From NCBI GenBank assembly GCA_030562195.1, contig JAUJPP010000003.1, forward strand, positions 35,842,602 through 35,906,601: DNA of 64,000 nucleotides, in the 5' to 3' direction. Each line of letters opens with the position of its first letter. The stretch's first letter is position 1. The position numbers were made by a program, and so were the translations under genes. Source of the stretch: Nipponacmea schrenckii (taxonomy: Eukaryota; Mollusca; Gastropoda; Lottiidae). Positions 7,030-46,259 of the stretch are shown piece by piece. Below the pieces are notes generated by a model. The model was not told the DNA's origin. It saw only the letters and a list, made by a program, of their open reading frames with translations, and searched no databases.

Positions 7030-8830
7030 ACTCTTTTATGTTAACCTCCCAACACTGTTTTTTTTTTTACATTAAAAAGGCGCAAATTCAGAAATATGAC
7101 ATAAAATGAAATTAACAATAATATTATATTCTCTTATATGAAAATGCACCTACCATATGTAGCCCAGAATACATAACTTATAGCATAAAAAGCTATAAAT
7201 TTAAATACCATCATGAAACACTGTTTAACTGATGATTCACATTCTCCTTTTACCCTAAACTTAGTCGAAAAACCCATTTCCATGGTAACATTAATGATAA
7301 TTTGTTGGAACTGTCTGTATGAGCTGGACGAATACATTCCGTAAGAGGGGATGGAAACAAAAATCAATGTCAATTGTATCGATTTCCTTGCTTCTTGTTA
7401 GGGCTTTAAGACTATATAAAAGTTCTCGTGAAGATAGCAGACGACGGATGCAATTACTGAATAAGGAAGAATGTAATCCATCATTGACCTTAGTACGATA
7501 CAGTACCAGAAATCCAATCGAATGCGAAATTACTATGTGTTGGTGTGGCTAGTCTACCCCTAAAAGAAGTTGCTCTGTGAATATTGATTTGTGTTGACTA
7601 TTTCCGATGAGTCAATAGAGCCTACCCTGTCACTTACGGTATAACCATACTATAACACACTCTCATATAAAGTTTCATGAAAATTTTCATTTTTAAAACA
7701 AATTATGATTTTTGTATACAATGATAAAGAATTAAGAAATAATAATGAAAAAAAATGGAATAAAAGCCATTCCGCCTTCAATATCCTTAAACCGTCGTCC
7801 TCAGTCATGATAGCAATAGATTGTTATTAAGTTTATTAAAGGTATTTAAGTTGGTTTCCCTTATTTTCATATATATACATGTATATCATAATTGGATCGG
7901 TAATAATTGTATCAATAGAAAGTAGAGGTTCTAATGAGCTGGAAAATACCAGACGGTCCTTAATTAACTCGTAATTAGGCTATTTATGATGGGATTTCCC
8001 TCGGTAGGGTAATGTAGGTATGTAAGTCAAGTCTCAAATGTCGTTGATCTTTTTTTTTGATCATCCAGTCTGTTAATTCGGTACATAACCGGACGCTGTG
8101 GTTGTTAAATATGCACGCATGCATAACAACAATGGCATATTGGTATTTCATTTATTATTTCTAGCATAAGGTAATAAAACGTTTAAATATCACTTTGTAA
8201 AACATTATGAATTAATTTAAATAAGTTTCAACTCACTAATAATAAAAATACAAAATCAATTCTTATACGCCTTCATTCATAATATGACGTCATTTGGTCA
8301 CGTGAAATGGAGTCTAAATTTAGCGTTTCAAAGCAGATCAGAGTCAAATGAATTCTACAAGCATTTCTACGCCCACATGTCTTTGAACTTGAGAATACAT
8401 GGGTTATTCATTAGAAACCCCAATTAATCAATTAGTAAGCTTAATTTGGCTCTAATTATTGATTAGGGTGATTGAAAAGTAACAAGTTACTATTCAATAT
8501 AAGGCACTGGCACAGGGTTAAAGTTATGTTTACAATAATTGTGTGGTTATGTGTAATGAATTAAGTAAAACAAAATCATAACGTTATCATATAAAACTTC
8601 TTGGACCTAATAAAGAAATTCATAAAACTATTATTTACATTAGGGAAATACTTGAAACATTATTAAAAAATTTTTAATTGAAAGTACAGGATCAAAAAGG
8701 ACAGCTTCAAATTTCTGGAATAACGAAGAAAATTTATTAATGGCTACAACTATAGAAAATAAAGTCGTTCATACTGTTATATATTATAAAGTACAATGAT
8801 AGTTGATAAAATGAGAACATTAAGTTCTGT
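7030..8830. other. No gene recognised
   Basis: Two overlapping ORFs of under 80 codons occur at 7134-7552 on opposite strands, but neither has recognisable motifs or splice context. The rest is AT-rich non-coding sequence up to the 3' side of the Penelope-like element. Confidence 0.45.
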
Positions 8831-8834
8831 GGGA

Positions 8835-9150
8835 TCATTCTACATTATCGATAGAGTCAAGTCTACCACGAACAAGTATATCTTGTAGATTTTTATTTTT
8901 TGAATATGCTATGACTAATTTTTTGTAAAAAACAGTGGGAAATTTATTTTGTAATTCGGTATAGTATCTTTTGATGATTCGGGATGCTTGGCAAGAAATG
9001 TTATTGAATGGAGCAACAAATGGGATTATTTGAGAATCAAACTGTATATTTAATCCAGAGGGTGAAATGGTTTTTAGTTGATTCATCCAAAAGCTCTCCC
9101 TGTATAGTCTTGTACTCTTAGGGTTGGTGTCTTCTTCTGTGATGACATTT
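8835..9150 (-). pseudogene. C-terminal end of the PLE ORF2, out of frame
   Basis: The frame from about 9150 to the stop at 8835 continues the GIY-YIG protein with 'RLYRESFWMNQL', 'TISPSGLN' and, near the end, 'KNKNLQDILVRGRL', all typical of PLE C-termini. It is shifted relative to ORF2 at 'GCAGACACCC' near 9155; loss of two bases in an AC run is the simplest cause. About 100 residues are thus separated from the main protein. A +1 frameshift is possible but less likely. Confidence 0.7.
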
Positions 9151-11136
9151 TCAATGGGTGTCTGCTAAGGAATGGTTGACGGAATTGAAATGGTTCCCAA
9201 TAGGTTTATCCAGGTGATGGGAGATGTCGAACCGATGACCGTTAATTCTTTCTCTCAAAGAGTTTTGAGTTTCGCCTACGTACTGTAAATGGCATTTGTC
9301 GCATGAAATTAGGTAAATAATATTAGTAGTGGTACAAGAAAGTAAGCCGTTAATCGCGAATTGTTTACCGTTATGTTTATTAGAGAAGGAATTGGTTGTT
9401 AAAATATGCTCGCAGGTTCTACATCTTGTAGATCTGCACGGCCGTGATCCGAAAGATTGATTAGAGTTTACCGGAACGAGGATTGTATTCCGGTTCTCAA
9501 TTTCTGAAAGAGTTTTGCTTTTAATGCTGCGGAGATATCGTTTTGAATATCCCCGCTCTCGCAATTTCTTAAAGACTAATTGGCACGCATCATCAAAATC
9601 CTCTGTTCTGGTGCAAATTCTACGGAACCGTAGAACTTGCGATTTTATTATGCCTGAAAATGTATGCTTAGGATGAAAAGAGCTTTTCAATAAAAGTTGG
9701 TGGGTATCGGTAGGTTTGAAAAATACTTTGATATCAGCCTTCCTAGTTTCATTAAAATCCGGTCCTTTGAATACTGTTGTGTCGAGAAAGTCCATGCTAT
9801 TATCACTTATATTTGCTGTTAATTTGATTGATGGGTGATGGCTATTTAAAATTTCGAAGTATTGCCAGAATTCCTGGATAGTGTGTTGCCAAATTAAAAA
9901 TATGTCATCTAAAAAGCGTCCGTAGAAAAGTGGTTTAAAAGGAGAGATCAATTCAATTTCACGTTCCCATTCTGCCATGAAAATATTGGCATAACTTGGG
10001 GCAAATCGCTTACCCATTGCTGTTCCTGAAGTCTGAAGATAAACCTTACCGTTAAAATAAAAATCATTCCGTTTTAAACAAATTTCGAGTAATTGAAGAA
10101 TTTCAGAATCAGGTCGTTTTGGATCGGGAGTTCTCTCAAAGCATTTTTTTACAGCGTTCAAACCGGCTTCGTTGTCAATATTGGTATACATGCTACTAAC
10201 GTCCATTGATATGAAGAAAGCATTTTCCGGGATTTCTAAATTCTTTATTTTTGCAACGAAATCGGATGTGTCTTTTAGATAAGATGGGTGTTGGCACGCT
10301 AAAGGTAACAAAAAATGGTCTATGTATTCCGAAACTCGATAAGATTCGCTGGAGCAGTCTGAAATAATTGGTCGACCCTTAGGTACAATGTTTGGTAAAA
10401 ACCATTCTGTTTCCGGGTTCTTATGTATCTTCGGGAGTGTATAAATATGCCGTTGACGTGCCGTGGAATTTGCCGAAAGGTAATCGTATTGTTTATCTGA
10501 AATAATTTTGTCATTCAATAATTTCTTTAAAATGTCATTGATCATACTGCCGGTTTCTCTAAAAATCGGAGCATCTAAAATTTGGTAATGTTCGCATTTG
10601 TTTAATTGATTTTCAACTTCTTTGATATAATCTTCGCGGTTTAAAATGACACACGAGCTTCCTTTATCACTTTTCCGTATGATGATACTTTTATCATTCT
10701 TTAGGTTGGTTAAAATGGTCCTTTCAGCGCGCGTTAGGTTACTATTTACTTTTACCAATGGTAAGAGAGAGGTTTCAAATCGTATGTTATCGCAAATTTC
10801 TAAAATATCGGTATGTATTAGGGCATCTGGTGGAGTCCACTCAGATTTTTCCACAAATTTCTTCCGGGTACCTCTACCGAGGGTTTTTCTGTAAAAATAG
10901 GCCAATTTTATTAATCGTTCGAATTTGCAAGTGGCATCTAAAATTTTGTCAATCGATGAAGGCACTGCCGTGGGTATGAATTTAAGGCCTTTGTCCAATA
11001 GACTTTCTTCCATTACAGATAATGATCTTGAGCTCAGATTCACTACTGTTTTATCCAATTTCGGTCCACCCCCCGCATCTAGTTTAAATGGGCCATCCAG
11101 TGAGAAAATATATTCTTGGCTGTCATCTCTGTCCAA
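9151..11136 (-). CDS. PLE ORF2: Penelope-type reverse transcriptase with GIY-YIG endonuclease start
   Basis: 661 residues counted from a TTG; the first ATG in frame is at 11013 (residue 42), after the overlap with ORF1. The frame is also open upstream of 11136, so the TTG is not a real boundary and expression probably uses the frameshift. Visible PLE features: 'KSDKGSSCVIL' (155-165), 'LPKIHKNP' (234-241), RT motif A 'MDVSSMYTNI' (Asp 312), motif B 'TSGTAMGKRFAPSYANIFM' (369-387), and motif C 'YGRFLDDIFLIW' (Asp 410 and 411). After the RT come Cys pairs (567, 572, 575; 601, 612, 615) and the GIY-YIG core 'IIYLISC...LQYVGET' (607-623) with 'RINGHR' (630-635). Catalytic residues are intact. It terminates early at 9151 because of a frameshift. 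The product would copy its RNA by target-primed reverse transcription in the nucleus. Confidence 0.92.
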   Translation of the reverse strand: MDRDDSQEYIFSLDGPFKLDAGGGPKLDKTVVNLSSRSLSVMEESLLDKGLKFIPTAVPSSIDKILDATCKFERLIKLAYFYRKTLGRGTRKKFVEKSEWTPPDALIHTDILEICDNIRFETSLLPLVKVNSNLTRAERTILTNLKNDKSIIIRKSDKGSSCVILNREDYIKEVENQLNKCEHYQILDAPIFRETGSMINDILKKLLNDKIISDKQYDYLSANSTARQRHIYTLPKIHKNPETEWFLPNIVPKGRPIISDCSSESYRVSEYIDHFLLPLACQHPSYLKDTSDFVAKIKNLEIPENAFFISMDVSSMYTNIDNEAGLNAVKKCFERTPDPKRPDSEILQLLEICLKRNDFYFNGKVYLQTSGTAMGKRFAPSYANIFMAEWEREIELISPFKPLFYGRFLDDIFLIWQHTIQEFWQYFEILNSHHPSIKLTANISDNSMDFLDTTVFKGPDFNETRKADIKVFFKPTDTHQLLLKSSFHPKHTFSGIIKSQVLRFRRICTRTEDFDDACQLVFKKLRERGYSKRYLRSIKSKTLSEIENRNTILVPVNSNQSFGSRPCRSTRCRTCEHILTTNSFSNKHNGKQFAINGLLSCTTTNIIYLISCDKCHLQYVGETQNSLRERINGHRFDISHHLDKPIGNHFNSVNHSLADTH

Positions 11137-12311
11137 TGGATATTGTCGTTCTGAACTTTGATGAATCCGTGGTATTCTGGAATGGTAGTGGTATTGGTTG
11201 CCGGTTTTGCTGTGATCAGTTCATTAAATTTTGATAGGTTCTTGAAAGCTCCAGGACATGCTCGTTTTAAAGATGAGGAAATTGGTATTGGTGTGACATA
11301 CAGGGAGGCTTTTGGAAACTTGTTACGGACAATCGACAGTAGTTCTAACATTTGGATGTGAATAAAATTACCATCTTCTTGTTTATCATTTAATCCTACA
11401 TGTACTATAACTTTATTTGGTACTTCACTGGTTTCTGCTTTAGTGAGGACAGACTTTAAATGACAAATTCTTGCTCCTGGAAAGCTTTCTATTTGGGTTT
11501 CTGATGTGCCTTCTGGGATACGGCCCAAGTTTGACGATCCAATGATAAGAATAGGTTTTGTAGGTTTTGGTAGATTGAATTTAGATTTATCACTCTGTCG
11601 GGTATGAACGTGTGGTTTAGTAGAGGATCTAGATAATACTGGCTGGTTGATGACAGGAGAAGAAGTTGATGGCGAAGAAGATGGGGTGAGTGTTTTGTCA
11701 AAGGTAAGAGATCTGCGAGGTGATGTAGAAGAAGATGACGAGGAGGTTGTAGAAGTAGAGGTTGCAGAAGAAGACGTTGCAGAGGAAGACGGTGCATTCG
11801 TAAGAGACCTGCATGGTGATGAAGACGAAGATGATGAAGAAGAAAACGGTGCAATTGGGAGAGATCGGTGAGGTGATGATGAAGTAGATGCCGAAGAAGA
11901 TGGTATATTTATGTTGACAACATTTGAAGAGGAAAGCAAACTAGTAGGTTGGTCTGTAGGTGAATTCGGTAAAGAAGATCTTCTGCTTGAGAGATGTTTT
12001 CGCTTTGAAGGAGTTTCAAAAGAGGATGGAAAACTTGTCGGAGAATACGATCTGTTACGTTTTGGTTTCCCGGTAGATTGTGGAATGAAATTGAATCGGT
12101 TATTGGTAGAGGTTGGTTTGGTAGTTGGAGGAAGAGATACTTCTACCAACTCTACATTGCCTACATCCATATCCTCAAGTGTATCTGAAGCCGTATTTTT
12201 AATATCTGCCAAAAGTGATTTGAACTGTTCGACTACAGTTTGTTGTAAACGAGATTTATAAACTTTCCGGGAAACCAACTTAAAGGCATTAAGACTTTTA
12301 CACCACAACAT
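11079..12311 (-). CDS. PLE ORF1: serine-rich protein with C-terminal SGNH (GDSL-like) hydrolase domain
   Basis: 410 residues from ATG. The N-terminal 60 residues are basic then acidic. Residues 60-240 are low-complexity and rich in Ser, Thr and Pro, with several Ser runs. The C-terminal 160 residues carry the four SGNH blocks: I 'ILIIGSSNLG' (256-263, putative nucleophile Ser 259 or 260, with Ser in place of the usual Asp of GDS), II Gly 279 in 'SFPGARI', III 'GLND' (306-309), and V 'DNIHW' (389-393, catalytic Asp and His). Esterase-type ORF1 proteins are known in CR1-like LINEs, and GDSL-type ORFs have been reported in giant Athena-type PLEs (Terminons). The biochemical role is unknown; lipid or membrane contact, or RNP assembly, are guesses. 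It overlaps ORF2 by 58 bases and ends in a canonical slippery heptamer, so it is probably also the N-terminal part of a fusion with the RT. Confidence 0.8.
   Translation of the reverse strand: MLWCKSLNAFKLVSRKVYKSRLQQTVVEQFKSLLADIKNTASDTLEDMDVGNVELVEVSLPPTTKPTSTNNRFNFIPQSTGKPKRNRSYSPTSFPSSFETPSKRKHLSSRRSSLPNSPTDQPTSLLSSSNVVNINIPSSSASTSSSPHRSLPIAPFSSSSSSSSSPCRSLTNAPSSSATSSSATSTSTTSSSSSSTSPRRSLTFDKTLTPSSSPSTSSPVINQPVLSRSSTKPHVHTRQSDKSKFNLPKPTKPILIIGSSNLGRIPEGTSETQIESFPGARICHLKSVLTKAETSEVPNKVIVHVGLNDKQEDGNFIHIQMLELLSIVRNKFPKASLYVTPIPISSSLKRACPGAFKNLSKFNELITAKPATNTTTIPEYHGFIKVQNDNIHWTEMTAKNIFSHWMAHLN
11082..11088 (-). promoter_or_regulatory. Candidate -1 ribosomal frameshift site (T TTA AAC) at the ORF1/ORF2 junction
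   Basis: The last ORF1 codons read CAT TTA AAC TAG, so the heptamer T TTA AAC sits exactly in ORF1 phase with the stop directly after it. Re-reading one base gives TTT AAA CTA GAT, which is ORF2 residues 17-20 (F K L D). The X XXY YYZ form U UUA AAC is among the most efficient known -1 slippery sites. A G-rich tract (GCGGGGGGTGG) begins five bases after the stop and could belong to a stimulatory structure. Function is inferred. Confidence 0.75.
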
Positions 12312-16499: not shown

Positions 16500-17200
16500 C
16501 TTTTGTATGAGTATATTTTATTCTCGTCAAGTTAATATATTGATTGACCTGATTTTTGTTGTTAGTTTTAACGAACAATGTTATATATTGTATTATCCCT
16601 CGTTCTGCAAGATTTCGGTCAAATTTAAAGATGCCCATCTTCTTTAAGCATACACACAAAGATACTGATTGTCTTGAAATGTGAACACATAGAACTCGGC
16701 ATCCACTAAACTGACAATTTCACCACAAATCTACTTATGCTACGATTCTCATACAATGGTAATATTAATCTGTATAATGTCAAATTCCTGTTACCGTAAC
16801 ATAAAAAAGTATGTGAAATATTCAGAATTATAAAAAAGAGCACAAAATAGCCATTAAATACTTTTTCATAAAATATACAAGTTTTAGCTCTAAGCAAACA
16901 ATTAAAACTACCTTTAAACACGCAAATCTTTAGTACGGTAAGAAAGAATTTTCAACATGTAAACAAACATACTCAATAACATATTGGCTGTTTAAAAGAA
17001 TAACGACCTGTCGACTCAACAATGTAATGCATAGTTTGAGTTTTCAAGACAAACCCAGTTAATAAAAAGTGTATTTAAATATCCATTTTACTCGGCGCTT
17101 AATAAGTAAATGTACAAATTTATCAGCTGATGGGGCCGCGTGACGTTTCTCCATACAAAACCTATGGAAAATTATCCATGTTCTGACCCAATTTGGACTT
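16500..17200. other. No gene recognised
   Basis: Short motif-free ORFs only. Non-coding flank of the satellite array. Confidence 0.4.
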
Positions 17201-17201
17201 T

Positions 17202-20200
17202 TCGAGTGGCACCAGTTCAAAGTTTGGGTAATGCTCAACAAGCCACTATAGGGCTATATACTGGTGGCCGACCCTGACCCCCACACTAAAATGGCCATAA
17301 CTCGGCGAGTTTTGCTCCGATCGACACAATTTTTGTATAAAAAGAAAGATAATCCATTTCTACGTCTTTTCAGGCAGAAACTTATTTTCGATTTTTTTTC
17401 ACTTTTTCGACAAAAACGGTTTTGAAGTTCCACCCGAATTTTCAAGTTGAAAATGGCTGATATTTTGGTTGGGGAAAAGCTGGATACCAAAAGCGCTGTA
17501 ACTGCCAGAGTTTTCAAGGTATGGACCTATAATTCGGCAGTGAATATCTTCAGATAGCTGGCTACCTGCATTTCAAATTTCAAGTTTACATCTCCAGTAG
17601 TTTTCGAGTGGCACCAGTTCAAAGTTTGGGTAATGCTCAACAAGCCACTATAGGGCTATATACTGGTGGCCGACCCTGACCCCACACTAAAATGGCCATA
17701 ACTCGGCGAGTTTTGCTCCGATCGACACAATTTTTGTATAAAAAGAAAGATAATCCATTTCTACGTCTTTTTCAGGCAGAAACTTATTTTCGATTTTTTT
17801 TCACTTTTTCGACAAAAACGGTTTTGAAGTTCCACCCGAATTTTCAAGTTGAAAATGGCTGATATTTTGGTTGGGGAAAAGCTGGATACCAAAAGCGCTG
17901 TAACTGCCAGAGTTTTCAAGGTATGGACCTGAAATTCGGCAGTGAATATCTTCAGATAGCTGGCTACCTGCATTCAAATTTCAAGTTTACATCTCCAGTA
18001 GTTTTCGAGTGGCACCAGTTCAAAGTTTGGGTAATGCTCAACAAGCCACTATAGGGCTATATACTGGTGGCCGACCCTGACCCCCACACTAAAATGGCCA
18101 TAACTCGGCGAGTTTTGCTCCGATCGACACAATTTTTGTATAAAAAGAAAGATAATCCATTTCTACGTCTTTTTCAGGCAGAAACTTATTTTCGATTTTT
18201 TTTCACTTTTTCGACAAAAACGGTTTTGAAGTTCCACCCGAATTTTCAAGTTGAAAATGGCTGATATTTTGGTTGGGGAAAAGCTGGATACCAAAAGCGC
18301 TGTAACTGCCAGAGTTTTCAAGGTATGGACCTGAAATTCGGCAGTGAATATCTTCAGATAGTCTGGCTACCTGCATTTCAAATTTCAAGTTTACATCTCC
18401 AGTAGTTTTCGAGTGGCACCAGTTCAAAGTTTGGGTAATGCTCAACAAGCCACTATAGGGCTATATACTGGTGGCCGACCCTGACCCCCACACTAAAATG
18501 GCCATAACTCGGCGAGTTTTGCTCCGATCGACACAATTTTTGTATAAAAAGAAAGATAATCCATTTCTACGTCTTTTTCAGGCAGAAACTTATTTTCGAT
18601 TTTTTTTCACTTTTTCGACAAAAACGGTTTTGAAGTTCCACCCGAATTTTCAAGTTGAAAATGGCTGATATTTTGGTTGGGGAAAAGCTGGATACCAAAA
18701 GCGCTGTAACTGCCAGAGTTTTCAAGGTATGGACCTGAAATTCGGCAGTGAATATCTTCAGATAGCTGGCTACCTGCATTTCAAATTTCAAGTTTACATC
18801 TCCAGTAGTTTTCGAGTGGCACCAGTTCAAAGTTTGGGTAATGCTCAACAAGCCACTATAGGGCTATATACTGGTGGCCGACCCTGACCCCCACACTAAA
18901 ATGGCCATAACTCGGCGAGTTTTGCTCCGATCGACACAATTTTTGTATAAAAAGAAAGATAATCCATTTCTACGTCTTTTTCAGGCAGAAACTTATTTTC
19001 GATTTTTTTTCACTTTTTCGACAAAAACGGTTTTGAAGTTCCACCCGAATTTTCAAGTTGAAAATGGCTGATATTTTGGTTGGGGAAAAGCTGGATACCA
19101 AAAGCGCTGTAACTGCCAGAGTTTTCAAGGTATGGACCTGAAATTCGGCAGTGAATATCTTCAGATAGCTGGCTACCTGCATTTCAAATTTCAAGTTTAC
19201 ATCTCCAGTAGTTTTCGAGTGGCACCAGTTCAAAGTTTGGGTAATGCTCAACAAGCCACTATAGGGCTATATACTGGTGGCCGACCCTGACCCCCACACT
19301 AAAATGGCCATAACTCGGCGAGTTTTGCTCCGATCGACACAATTTTTGTATAAAAAGAAAGATAATCCATTTCTACGTCTTTTTCAGGCAGAAACTTATT
19401 TTCGATTTTTTTTCACCTTTTCGACAAAAACGGTTTTGAAGTTCCACCCGAATTTTCAAGTTGAAAATGGCTGATATTTTGGTTGGGAAAAAGCTGGATA
19501 CCAAAAGCGCTGTAACTGCCAGAGTTTTCAAGGTATGGACCTGAAATTCGGCAGTGAATATCTTCAGATATCTGGCTACCTGCATTCCAAATTTCAAGTT
19601 TACATCTCCAGTAGTTTTCGAGTGGCACCAGTTCAAAGTTTGGGTAATGCTCAACAAGCCACTATAGGGCTATATACTGGTGGCCGACCCTGACCCCCAC
19701 ACTAAAATGGCCATAACTCGGCGAGTTTTGCTCCGATCGACACAATTTTTTTTATAAAAAGAAAGATAATCCATTTCTACGTCTTTTTCAGGCAGAAACT
19801 TATTTTCGATTTTTTTTCACTTTTTCGACAAAAACGGTTTTGAAGTTCCACCCGAATTTTCAAGTTGAAAATGGCTGATATTTTGGTTGGGGAAAAGCTT
19901 GATACCAAAAGCGCTGTAACTGCCAGAGTTTTCAAGGTATGGACCTGAAATTCGGCAGTGAATATCTTCAGATAGCTGGCTACCTGCATTTCAAATTTCA
20001 AGTTTACATCTCCAGTAGTTTTCGAGTGGCACCAGTTCAAAGTTTGGGTAATGCTCAACAAGCCACTATAGGGCTATGTGGCCGACCCTGACCCCCACAC
20101 TAAAATGGCCATAACTCGGCGAGTTTTGCTCCGATCGACACAATTTTTGTATAAAAAGAAAGATAATCCATTTCTACGTCTTTTTCAGGCAGAAACTTAT

Positions 20201-23033
20201 TTTCGATTTTTTTTCACTTTTTCGACAAAAACGGTTTTGAAGTTCCACCCGAATTTTCAAGTTGAAAATGGCTGATATTTGGTTGGAAAGCTGGATACCA
20301 AAAGCGCTGTAACTGCCAGAGTTTTCAAGGTATGTTCGAGTGGCACCAGTTCAAAGTTTGGGTAATGCTCAACAAGCCACTATAGGGCTATATACTGGTG
20401 GCCGACCCTGACCCCACACTAAAATGGCCATAACTCGGCGAGTTTTGCTCCGATCGACACAATTTTTGTATAAAAAGAAAGATAATCCATTTCTACGTCT
20501 TTTTCAGGCAGAAACTTATTTTCGATTTTTTTTCACTTTTTCGACAAAAACGGTTTTGAAGTTCCACCCGAATTTTCAAGTTGAAAATGGCTGATATTTT
20601 GGTGGAAAAGCTGGATACCAAAAGCGCTGTAACTGCCAGAGTTTCAAGGTATGGACCTGAAATTCGCAGTGAATATTTCAGATACTGGCTACCTGCATTC
20701 AAATTTCAAGTTTACATCTCCAGTAGTTTTCGAGTGGCACCAGTTCAAAGTTTGGGTAATGCTCAACAAGCCACTATAGGGCTATATACTGGTGGCCGAC
20801 CCTGACCCCACACTAAAATGGCCATAACTCGGCGAGTTTTGCTCCGATCGACACAATTTTTGTATAAAAAGAAAGATAATCCATTTCTACGTCTTTTTCA
20901 GGCAGAAACTTATTTTCGATTTTTTTTCACTTTTTCGACAAAAACGGTTTTGAAGTTCCACCCGAATTTTCAAGTTGAAAATGGCTGATATTTTGGTTGG
21001 GGAAAAGCTGGATACCAAAAGCGCTGTAACTGCCAGAGTTTTCAAGGTATGGACCTGAAATTCGGCAGTGAATATCTTCAGATAGCTGGCTACCTGCATT
21101 TCAAATTTCAAGTTTACATCTCCAGTAGTTTTCGAGTGGCACCAGTTCAAAGTTTGGGTAATGCTCAACAAGCCACTATAGGGCTATATACTGGTGGCCG
21201 ACCCTGACCCCCACACTAAAATGGCCATAACTCGGCGAGTTTTGCTCCGATCGACACAATTTTTGTATAAAAAGAAAGATAATCCATTTCTACGTCTTTT
21301 TCAGGCAGAAACTTATTTTCGATTTTTTTTCACTTTTCTGACAAAAACGGTTTTGAAGTTCCACCCGAATTTTCAAGTTGAAAATGGCTGATATTTTGGT
21401 TGGGAAAAGCTGGATACCAAAAGCGCTGTAACTGCCAGAGTTTTCAAGGTATGGACCTGAAATTCGGCAGTGAATATCTTCAGATACTGGCTACCTGCAT
21501 TCAAATTTCAAGTTTACATCTCCAGTAGTTTTCGAGTGGCACCAGTTCAAAGTTTGGGTAATGCTCAACAAGCCACTATAGGGCTATATACTGGTGGCCG
21601 ACCCTGACCCCCACACTAAAATGGCCATAACTCGGCGAGTTTTGCTCCGATCGACACAATTTTTTATAAAAAGAAAGATAATCCATTTCTACGTCTTTTT
21701 CAGGCAGAAACTTATTTTCGATTTTTTTTCACTTTTTCGACAAAAACGGTTTTGAAGTTCCACCCGAATTTTCAAGTTGAAAATGGCTGATATTTTGGTT
21801 GGGGAAAAGCTGGATACCAAAAGCGCTGTAACTGCCAGAGTTTTCAAGGTATGGACCTGAAATTCGGCAGTGAATATCTTCAGATAGCTGGCTACCTGCA
21901 TTTCAAATTTCAAGTTTACATCTCCAGTAGTTTTCGAGTGGCACCAGTTCAAAGTTTGGGTAATGCTCAACAAGCCACTATAGGGCTATATACTGGTGGC
22001 CGACCCTGACCCCCACACTAAAATGGCCATAACTCGGCGAGTTTTGCTCCGATCGACACAATTTTTGTATAAAAAGAAAGATAATCCATTTCTAGTCTTT
22101 TTCAGGCAGAAACTTATTTTCGATTTTTTTTCACTTTTTCGACAAAAACGGTTTTGAAGTTCCACCGAATTTTCAAGTTGAAAATGGCTGATATTTTGGT
22201 TGGGGAAAAGCTGGATACCAAAAGCGCTGTAACTGCCAGAGTTTTCAAGGTATGGACCTGAAATTCGGCAGTGAATATCTTCAGATAGCTGGCTACCTGC
22301 ATTTCAAATTTCAAGTTTACATCTCCAGTAGTTTTCGAGTGGCACCAGTTCAAAGTTTGGGTAATGCTCAACAAGCCACTATAGGGCTATATACTGGTGG
22401 CCGACCCTGACCCCCACACTAAAATGGCCATAACTCGGCGAGTTTTGCTCCGATCGACACAATTTTTGTATAAAAAGAAAGATAATCCATTTCTACGTCT
22501 TTTTCAGGCAGAAACTTATTTTCGATTTTTTTTCACTTTTTCGACAAAAACGGTTTTGAAGTTCCACCCGAATTTTCAAGTTGAAAATGGCTGATATTTT
22601 GGTTGGGGAAAAGCTGGATACCAAAAGCGCTGTAACTGCCAGAGTTTTCAAGGTATGGACCTGAAATTCGGCAGTGAATATCTTCAGATAGCTGGCTACC
22701 TGCATTTCAAATTTCAAGTTTACATCTCCAGTAGTTTTCGAGTGGCACCAGTTCAAAGTTTGGGTAATGCTCAACAAGCCACTATAGGGCTATATACTGG
22801 TGGCCGACCCTGACCCCCACACTAAAATGGCCATAACTCGGCGAGTTTTGCTCCGATCGACACAATTTTTGTATAAAAAGAAAGATAATCCATTTCTACG
22901 TCTTTTTCAGGCAGAAACTTATTTTCGATTTTTTTTTCACTTTTTCGACAAAAACGGTTTTGAAGTTCCACCAGAATTTTCAAGTTGAAAATGGCTGATA
23001 TTTTGGTTGGTGAAAAGCTGGATACCAAAAGCA
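17202..23033. repeat. Satellite array, unit about 403 bp, about 14 units
   Basis: The landmark 'GCCACTATAGGGCTATATAC' (or its start) recurs at 17242, 17644, 18045, 18449, 18852, 19255, 19658, 20062, 20376, 20770, 21172, 21572, 21974, 22375 and 22778. Intervals are 394-404 bp except one of 314 bp (20062 to 20376), where about 90 bp are deleted. Units are nearly identical, differing by single substitutions and small deletions. Each unit happens to hold open frames on both strands (65 codons on plus, 94 on minus); because the copies are near-identical this gives no independent evidence of coding, and I call them non-coding. The first partial unit starts at about 17202 and the last breaks off at about 23033, where LINE sequence begins. 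Confidence 0.95.
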
Positions 23034-45397: not shown

Positions 45398-45770
45398 TTT
45401 AGGGATTCTATTAGGCATGAACCAATCCTTGGTAGGATTCTTATGAATTTTCGGCAAATCATATAAGTGTCTCTCGCGGCAATCAGGTTTGGCAGAAAGG
45501 TAGTCATATTGTTTCTGTTTTAAATGACTTGTTTTAACCAAGTCGGCAAGAATATTGTTTATCATATCAGCAGTTTCTTTAAAAATCGGCTCCGGTAAAA
45601 TTGCATAGTGTTTAGGATTATTCAATTGATGCTCTGCTTCTGCAATATAATCTTCCCTATTTAATATAACGCAACATGAACCTTTGTCACTCTTTTAATT
45701 ACAATGCTTTTGTCTTTTTTAAGTACATTTAATGCTTCACGTTCTACTCGCGTGAGATTAGGCTTCTCGT
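45398..45770 (-). pseudogene. Fragment of a second Penelope-like RT
   Basis: Minus-strand translation shows 'NLTRVEREAL' (about 45760-45730), then after a frame change in an A-run near 45695 'SDKG' and 'CCVILNREDYI', 'KQKQYDYLSAK', 'RHLYDLPKIHKNP' and 'WFMPNRIPK' at the gap edge. It lines up with residues 133-253 of the PLE ORF2 at 9.2-11.1 kb but differs at many positions, so it is another PLE subfamily or an old copy. The catalytic part is lost in or beyond the gap. Confidence 0.8.
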
Positions 45771-46259
45771 GTGTTATGGAAATATTTGATATTTGGTTAT
45801 TCATACTTGTAAATATTTCTGGACATCAAATTTCACATCTAGACCAAAAATTAGTGAAATATGGGAATGCAAAAACCCCCAAAGGAAGGCCTGGAGTACC
45901 CTGTTCGAAAATGCAAATATATACACTAGTAAGCGAATAACAGCATTTGTAATGATGCACCCCTATTTGGCTCTCTTTTGGATGTCATTGATGGCGCGTC
46001 TAACACTAAATCAATCATTAACTTTCTTATTTCTCTAGATAAATGAAATTTGTAAATACTATTGAGTTTTATAACATAAATCCAGGCTACAAATCCAAGT
46101 CAGAAAAAAATGACAACATTTGTTATTTAGTTGGCCTTCAATGTCTTCACACTCATTCTGGCTGTTCCTGCTGAAAGCATCATAATCATTATAACTCGTA
46201 AAGTTTTTTTTATCCTATCGACCACACTTTTGCGTGAAATGAGAGCTATCACACTTCTA

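What the first reader, a model, noticed from the sequence alone, without database searches (positions are those of the whole stretch)
11013..11142. Canonical -1 frameshift heptamer (U UUA AAC) joins an SGNH ORF1 to a Penelope-type RT
Directly seen: ORF1 ends CAT TTA AAC TAG, the heptamer T TTA AAC is in ORF1 phase and touches the stop. ORF2 is in the -1 frame, is open through the overlap, contains no ATG there (first ATG at 11013), and the slipped codons TTT AAA CTA GAT match ORF2 residues. A G-rich tract follows at once. Known: U UUA AAC is a highly efficient -1 slippery site in several RNA viruses. Inferred: the element makes ORF1 alone and an ORF1-RT-GIY-YIG fusion. I do not know of a described -1 frameshift in a Penelope-like element. 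Unlike most viral sites there is no coding spacer before the stop.
Basis: partly seen in the sequence, partly recalled or inferred. Interest (0 to 1): 0.88.

Follow-up and report, generated by a model that had tools for sequence, protein, structure and literature searches.

The report
Conserved slip site in Penelope retrotransposon
In the genome this window comes from, many diverged copies of a mobile element keep the same seven-letter "slippery" sequence right at the end of their first gene, where ribosomes are predicted to slip back one letter and so make the element's copying enzyme as an extension of the first protein, as many RNA viruses do.

Summary
Confirmed and strengthened. On the minus strand, ORF1 (SGNH-esterase type) ends CAT TTA AAC TAG and the RT/GIY-YIG frame is open in -1 across TTTAAAC (11082-11088). 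In the same genome 56 of 58 Penelope-like joints examined keep TTTAAAC, although nine compared representatives share as little as 62% protein identity and codons for identical residues differ by 26-60%. In 11 representatives the next zero-frame codon is a stop, variously TAG, TGA or TAA. L001, an animal-type element in a bacterial assembly, has the same heptamer and phase. Several representatives have no AUG that could start a full RT; in L061 the RT frame opens one codon before the heptamer. Programmed -1 frameshifting is the best explanation; its efficiency is unmeasured. No conserved downstream RNA structure was found. Against: one degraded copy, one copy fused in frame, relatives without the heptamer, and five representatives with an upstream ATG that could allow reinitiation. 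SGNH ORF1s in Penelope-like elements are already published (PMC3905857). I found no report of frameshifting in them in an open-licence library.

The parts
8456..12285 (-). Penelope-like element copy, by the extent of homology to sister copies
   Evidence: blastn against sister loci, (ends 8456/8461 and 12285 recur in several copies)
11079..12311 (-). ORF1 as open in the window; its ATG and first codons lie outside the shared element, so the true N-terminus is missing
11082..11579 (-). SGNH/GDSL-type domain of ORF1
   Evidence: Pfam OSK E=0.0017, below its cut-off; PDB 4c1b E=0.0012 with this stretch, 2.6e-11 with profile A2
11097..11099 (-). TGG (W) codon of the ORF1 tail motif HWxxxLN
11082..11088 (-). 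slippery heptamer T TTA AAC in ORF1 phase
11079..11081 (-). ORF1 stop TAG directly after the heptamer
11069..11076 (-). G-rich tract GCGGGGGG; similar but not invariant in relatives
9151..11220 (-). RT frame (-1 to ORF1), stop to stop
11011..11013 (-). first ATG of the RT frame after the heptamer
9835..10266 (-). reverse transcriptase match (RVT_1)
   Evidence: E=2e-8
9412..9438 (-). Cys-rich stretch between RT and endonuclease
   Evidence: invariant C595, C600, C603 in A1
9220..9321 (-). GIY-YIG match
   Evidence: E=0.00079, below the Pfam cut-off
8835..9164 (-). C-terminal continuation of the endonuclease part in another frame (this copy is broken)

Best explanation
The end of ORF1 in this Penelope-like retrotransposon carries the heptamer T TTA AAC directly before its stop codon, with the RT frame open in -1 across it, and ribosomes likely slip back one base there so that a minority would go on to make an ORF1-RT-endonuclease fusion. 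Most ribosomes would stop at the adjacent terminator and release the SGNH protein alone, a Gag/Gag-Pol-like division. Shown: the anatomy; its conservation across groups that have diverged at synonymous positions; the lack of a usable AUG for the RT frame in several of them; the same site in L001. Inferred: that slippage happens, how often, that the fusion is the working RT, and what stimulates it. The candidates for a stimulator are the adjacent stop, the G-rich tract, or a structure that I did not detect.
For: Heptamer in phase at 40 of 40 RT-aligned joints of 50 loci, plus L055 and 7 of 7 further loci and 8 of 10 joints among 13 more loci. Synonymous divergence 26-60%. TTTAAACT is the longest invariant run in 11 aligned representatives. 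A zero-frame stop follows at once in all 11 of these and is TAG, TGA or TAA. -1 frame open only 1 codon upstream in L061 and 4 in L041, L043, L047; next in-frame ATG 101 codons on in L017 and L028, 93 in L050, 370 in L001, and none upstream in these four. Same heptamer, phase and SGNH ORF1 in L001, about 45% identical in RT. RT relatives: FKL in 16 of 23 usable N-termini, 13 of these 16 compatible with the ORF1 W codon against a background of 0.04. U_UUA_AAC is among the most shift-prone heptamers on mammalian ribosomes (PMC5009743, passage).
Against: No measurement. No conserved downstream structure; single folds not better than shuffles (z from -1.24 to 0.22). L087 has TTTAGAC in a degraded copy; L083 is fused in frame; L059 has lost the stop. 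L002 has TTTATGT at the joint; L003, L004 and L005 show no TTTAAAC in the stretch examined. Of 11 ORF1 tails four do not read LN or LK at the site (P0124, P0127, P0128, L002). Five of 23 usable RT N-termini have neither FK nor FF. Five representatives have an ATG four codons upstream. The genome copies are related, so the 58 joints are not 58 independent tests; two are duplicates from a doubled contig.
Confidence: 0.87

Rival explanations
1. Termination-reinitiation: after ending ORF1 some ribosomes restart on a nearby RT-frame AUG, and the heptamer is kept for another reason.
For: L034, L035, L041, L043 and L047 have an RT-frame ATG four codons before the heptamer, close to the ORF1 stop; L060 has one six codons before.
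Against: The window family, L028, L017, L050, L061 and L001 have none in the open stretch upstream; their next one is 25 (window family), 101, 101, 93 and 370 codons downstream, and none was seen for L061 within its short locus. The ATG in the five cases arises from the A before the conserved TGG codon of ORF1, so it may be a by-product.
Confidence: 0.07
2. Splicing, or non-AUG or internal initiation, gives the RT its own start; FKL and LN are conserved for protein reasons.
For: Penelope elements can carry introns: PMC3846280 mentions a spliceosomal intron within one ORF (passage). Splice sites were not scanned here.
Against: Recognisable coding sequence runs on both sides of the joint within some 60 nt, leaving little room for an intron. 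In L061 the RT frame offers only GTC before TTT AAA C. Protein constraint would have to hold two overlapping peptides; elsewhere in the RT invariant F and K columns use one codon throughout in only 2 of 22 and 3 of 19 cases.
Confidence: 0.05
3. Chance or decay: two frames overlap in dead copies and TTTAAAC is only a common AT-rich word.
For: TTTAAAC is not enriched in the window and the window copy is broken in its endonuclease part.
Against: 56 of 58 joints; 164 genome matches to heptamer + stop + G-rich tract against 0 for the reversed pattern, contig C3 counted twice; same site in L001.
Confidence: 0.01

Closest known systems
Retroviral and coronaviral -1 frameshift sites (U UUA AAC type)
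   Same: Same heptamer class and phase; polymerase gene entered in -1 as an extension of the upstream protein (PMC5009743, passages).
   Different: Here a non-LTR, telomerase-related retroelement; no downstream stem or pseudoknot found; the stop is the very next codon in all 11 own-genome representatives (the stop next to the site is known from RSV and BYDV, PMC4373837).
SGNH-esterase ORF1 retrotransposons (CR1/L2, RTEX, some Penelope-like; ZfL2-1)
   Same: ORF1 with SGNH domain before the RT ORF; PMC3905857 reports it in Penelope-like elements (passages); PDB 4c1b is the best solved match.
   Different: How the RT ORF is expressed is not addressed there: 'frameshift' has 0 occurrences in the main text.
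Neptune-like Penelope elements
   Same: RT plus GIY-YIG with a Cys-rich stretch between them (feature named in PMC3846280; seen here).
   Different: An SGNH ORF1 joined by a slip site is not mentioned in the passages I read; no tree with named Neptune elements was made.
HeT-A gag frameshift (telomeric non-LTR element)
   Same: Frameshifting in a retrotransposon without LTRs (PMC5009743, passage).
   Different: HeT-A has no RT of its own; here the shift would deliver the RT.

Membership tests
-1 programmed frameshift site | X XXY YYZ heptamer in the zero frame of the upstream ORF | tested here: met
-1 programmed frameshift site | downstream ORF open in -1 across the heptamer; zero-frame stop soon after | tested here: met
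   exception L059
-1 programmed frameshift site | heptamer conserved beyond what the protein requires | tested here: met
   56 of 58 joints; codon comparison
-1 programmed frameshift site | no independent start codon for the downstream ORF | tested here: inconclusive
   met in window family, L028, L017, L050, L061, L001; not met in L034, L035, L041, L043, L047, L060
-1 programmed frameshift site | stimulatory structure about 5-9 nt downstream | tested here: inconclusive
   no conserved stem, single folds not significant, Rfam none; pseudoknots not modelled
-1 programmed frameshift site | measured -1 product | not testable with these tools
   needs a reporter or peptides
Penelope-like element | RT domain | tested here: met
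   RVT_1 2e-8
Penelope-like element | GIY-YIG endonuclease C-terminal to RT | tested here: met
   weak in this broken copy (below cut-off); PF01541 precomputed in many listed homologues
[quoted passage not shown]
   C595, C600, C603 invariant in A1; placement by tree not tested
SGNH/GDSL esterase | catalytic S, G, N, D/H positions | tested here: met
   in A2 S, G, N and D columns invariant in 8 of 8, H in 7 of 8 (P0122 lacks it); assignment to catalytic roles by the motifs, inferred
SGNH/GDSL esterase | hydrolase activity | not testable with these tools
   shown for ZfL2-1 in PMC3905857 (abstract passage), not here

The most novel reading that the evidence does not exclude
A whole branch of animal Penelope-like elements, from molluscs to fish, makes its reverse transcriptase only as a -1 frameshift extension of an SGNH-esterase ORF1 protein: an old Gag/Gag-Pol-like system outside viruses and LTR elements, with a U UUA AAC site that is swapped for U UUU UUU in at least one lineage, a stop codon built in as the next codon or a few codons on, and no conserved structural stimulator.
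Probability: 0.55. Interest if true: 0.82.

Novelty: new variant of a known kind. Interest (0 to 1): 0.72.

Why it matters
Penelope-like elements are relatives of telomerase RT, and the papers I could read say little on how the amounts of their proteins are set. A conserved frameshift would mean that their RT is made joined to an esterase-type ORF1 protein and as a fixed minority, which suggests particle or RNP assembly logic like Gag-Pol. It also offers a natural series of sites (three stop codons, several flanks, one probable swapped heptamer) for studying slippage next to a stop codon without an evident stem, and it warns annotators that such RTs look like start-less or split genes.

Tried and rejected
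Conserved RNA structure after the heptamer: five single stretches folded, 11 aligned representatives, Rfam scan of 10800-11400. Nothing significant; L001 alone has a GC-rich stem starting 6 nt after the heptamer (-22.4 kcal/mol, but 31 of 200 shuffles fold as well). The G-rich tract as an invariant signal: rejected, L041 and L043 read GCGGGAGG and L061 ACTGGGGA. Relatives in viral contigs: 48 stretches matched a pattern, none confirmed. More ORF1 homologues by alignment search: five hits, only two new, probably because serine-rich words filled the candidate list. Other PLE branches in the same genome with L004 as query: not completed; P0107 and P0048 as queries did not complete. P0009 and P0097 as queries returned mostly the same families. 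In one search, 48 of 120 listed proteins had no anchor and 47 were dropped as short; seen by eye, P0091, P0092 and P0113 (dropped) carry FKL and P0001 (dropped) does not; P0003 and P0054 were mis-anchored and left out, giving 23 usable of 25. No background was computed for the stop-compatibility count.
Full report
Observation. On the minus strand the window holds a Penelope-like element copy at about 8456-12285. ORF1 ends at 11079 with CAT TTA AAC TAG; the RT/GIY-YIG frame is -1 to ORF1 and open from 11220 to 9151. TTTAAAC alone is not rare (41 in the window, 34.0 expected), so comparison had to decide. The copy itself is broken in its endonuclease part and lacks the ORF1 N-terminus.

Identity of the parts. 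ORF2 matches RVT_1 (2e-8) and, below the cut-off, GIY-YIG. It has 846 homologues at E <= 1e-10, of which the best 120 are listed, many with both domains precomputed. A Cys-rich stretch between RT and endonuclease is the Neptune feature named in PMC3846280 (passages). ORF1 has an SGNH-type domain: Pfam OSK at 0.0017, below its cut-off; PDB 4c1b, an 'ORF1-encoded protein' that I recall to be the ZfL2-1 esterase, at 0.0012 singly and 2.6e-11 by profile. The S, G, N and D columns are invariant in eight sequences and H is kept in seven of eight. SGNH ORF1s in Penelope-like elements were noted in PMC3905857 (passages), so that part is not new.

Host. The two closest ORF1 proteins are from Lottia gigantea, 94% and 90% identical over the domain; both end SHWMAHLN.

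Copies in the same genome. With ORF2 as query 65 matches were scored, a capped list. I inspected 50 loci anchored on the RT alignment: four start too late, six do not align at the joint, and 40 of the 40 that align carry TTTAAAC in the same phase. L055, one of the six, has it as well. Seven further loci: 7 of 7, of which L059 has lost the stop and L060 has no recognisable ORF1 end. Thirteen more: L084, L085 and L093 lack the joint; of the other ten, eight have it, L087 has TTTAGAC in a degraded copy and L083 is fused in frame by an extra base in the heptamer. Total 56 of 58, counting two exact duplicates (L007, L020) from the doubled contig C3. A pattern of heptamer, stop and G-rich tract occurs 164 times in the genome and 0 times reversed (C3 counted twice).

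More than shared ancestry. Among nine own-genome representatives protein identity goes down to 62%, and codons for unchanged residues differ in 26-60% of cases. TTTAAACT is the longest invariant run in the alignment of 11 representatives, while the stop after it is TAG, TGA or TAA and upstream codons vary. Among other columns with invariant F, 2 of 22 use one codon throughout, and for K 3 of 19; with L001 added, 1 of 15 and 1 of 12. This is a rough measure, as related sequences are not independent.

No other way into the RT frame in several groups. Upstream of the heptamer the -1 frame is open for 44 codons in the window family, 39 in L034, 33 in L035, 23 in L028, 12 in L050, 9 in L017, 4 in L041, L043 and L047, and 1 in L061; 21 in L001. 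The next ATG is 25 codons downstream in the window family, 101 in L017 and L028, 93 in L050 and 370 in L001. Against this, L034, L035, L041, L043 and L047 have an ATG four codons before the heptamer, and L060 one six codons before.

Beyond this genome. A scan of genome contigs gave five relatives in bacterial assemblies, presumably eukaryotic DNA. L001 has an SGNH ORF1, T TTA AAC at the same place in two tandem copies, and a stop four codons on; a fish origin is my inference from the Epulopiscium record and from its likeness to P0123 of the fish Pampus. L002 has the two-frame layout but TTTATGT. L003, L004 and L005 show no TTTAAAC from 900 nt upstream of the RT match to 200 nt into it. Of 11 ORF1 tails (window, P0121-P0128, L001, L002) six read LN at the site and one LK; four do not fit; all 11 stop within nine codons of it. 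Of 23 usable RT N-termini 16 have FKL, two FFC or FFL and five neither. LN in one frame and FK in the other together force T TTA AAC, and 13 of the 16 also fit the W codon of ORF1 (background 0.04), so many of these probably carry the heptamer; some of the 16 are close relatives. P0128 and P0009 interlock over 14 codons, the only such pair among 7 x 120, and this forces T TTT TTT next to the stop-side end. That is deduced from protein, not read from DNA.

Mechanism. I take it that most ribosomes stop at the adjacent terminator and a minority slip from TTA AAC to TTT AAA and make the fusion. U_UUA_AAC is among the most shift-prone heptamers on mammalian ribosomes (PMC5009743, passages). A stop as next codon occurs at the Rous sarcoma and barley yellow dwarf virus sites; in HIV-1 reporters a stop there lowered apparent slippage by about 70% without abolishing it (PMC4373837, passages), so the adjacent stop may hold the fusion at a low level. 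The stimulator is unknown: no conserved stem, pseudoknots untested.

Literature. Searches for Penelope-like with frameshift (34 papers, 25 listed), Penelope-like elements with ORF1, ORF2 and GIY-YIG (4), Penelope with ribosomal frameshift and retrotransposon (2), and Penelope with slippery and retrotransposon (0) gave no report of such a site in titles, abstracts or the passages I opened (passages). The review PMC5009743 has no 'Penelope' in the first 300,000 of its 475,107 characters. I read listings and passages, no whole paper. The library lacks most subscription journals, and a 2021 PLE paper that I looked for by a recalled DOI is not held. The novelty claim is limited to that.

Noticed in passing
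G000 contig C3 (holds the window at 6216266-6280265): C3 (59,252,672 bases) looks like one sequence laid down twice: matches recur at an offset of 29,626,336, exactly half its length. Probably an assembly artefact; copy counts on C3 are doubled.
   Followed up: partly
window 45398-45816, minus strand: A second, short Penelope-like RT fragment (about 68-70% identical to P0001/P0004 over 99 residues).
   Followed up: no
L083 (G000:C10:4955300-4955700): A natural copy with an extra base in the heptamer (TTTTAAAAC) that puts ORF1 and RT in one frame; open frame 986 aa.
   Followed up: partly
L022 (G000:C1:6362515-6364356): A copy with the joint deleted: SGNH part runs directly into the RT in one open frame of 1289 aa.
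   Followed up: no
L001, L002, L003, L004: Animal-type Penelope elements sit in contigs of bacterial genome assemblies (Epulopiscium, Enterovibrio, a mussel gill symbiont, a Poribacteria bin), so those contigs are probably host contamination.
   Followed up: no
window 17199-23032: A long, nearly perfect tandem array with a 403-base unit (98% matches).
   Followed up: no
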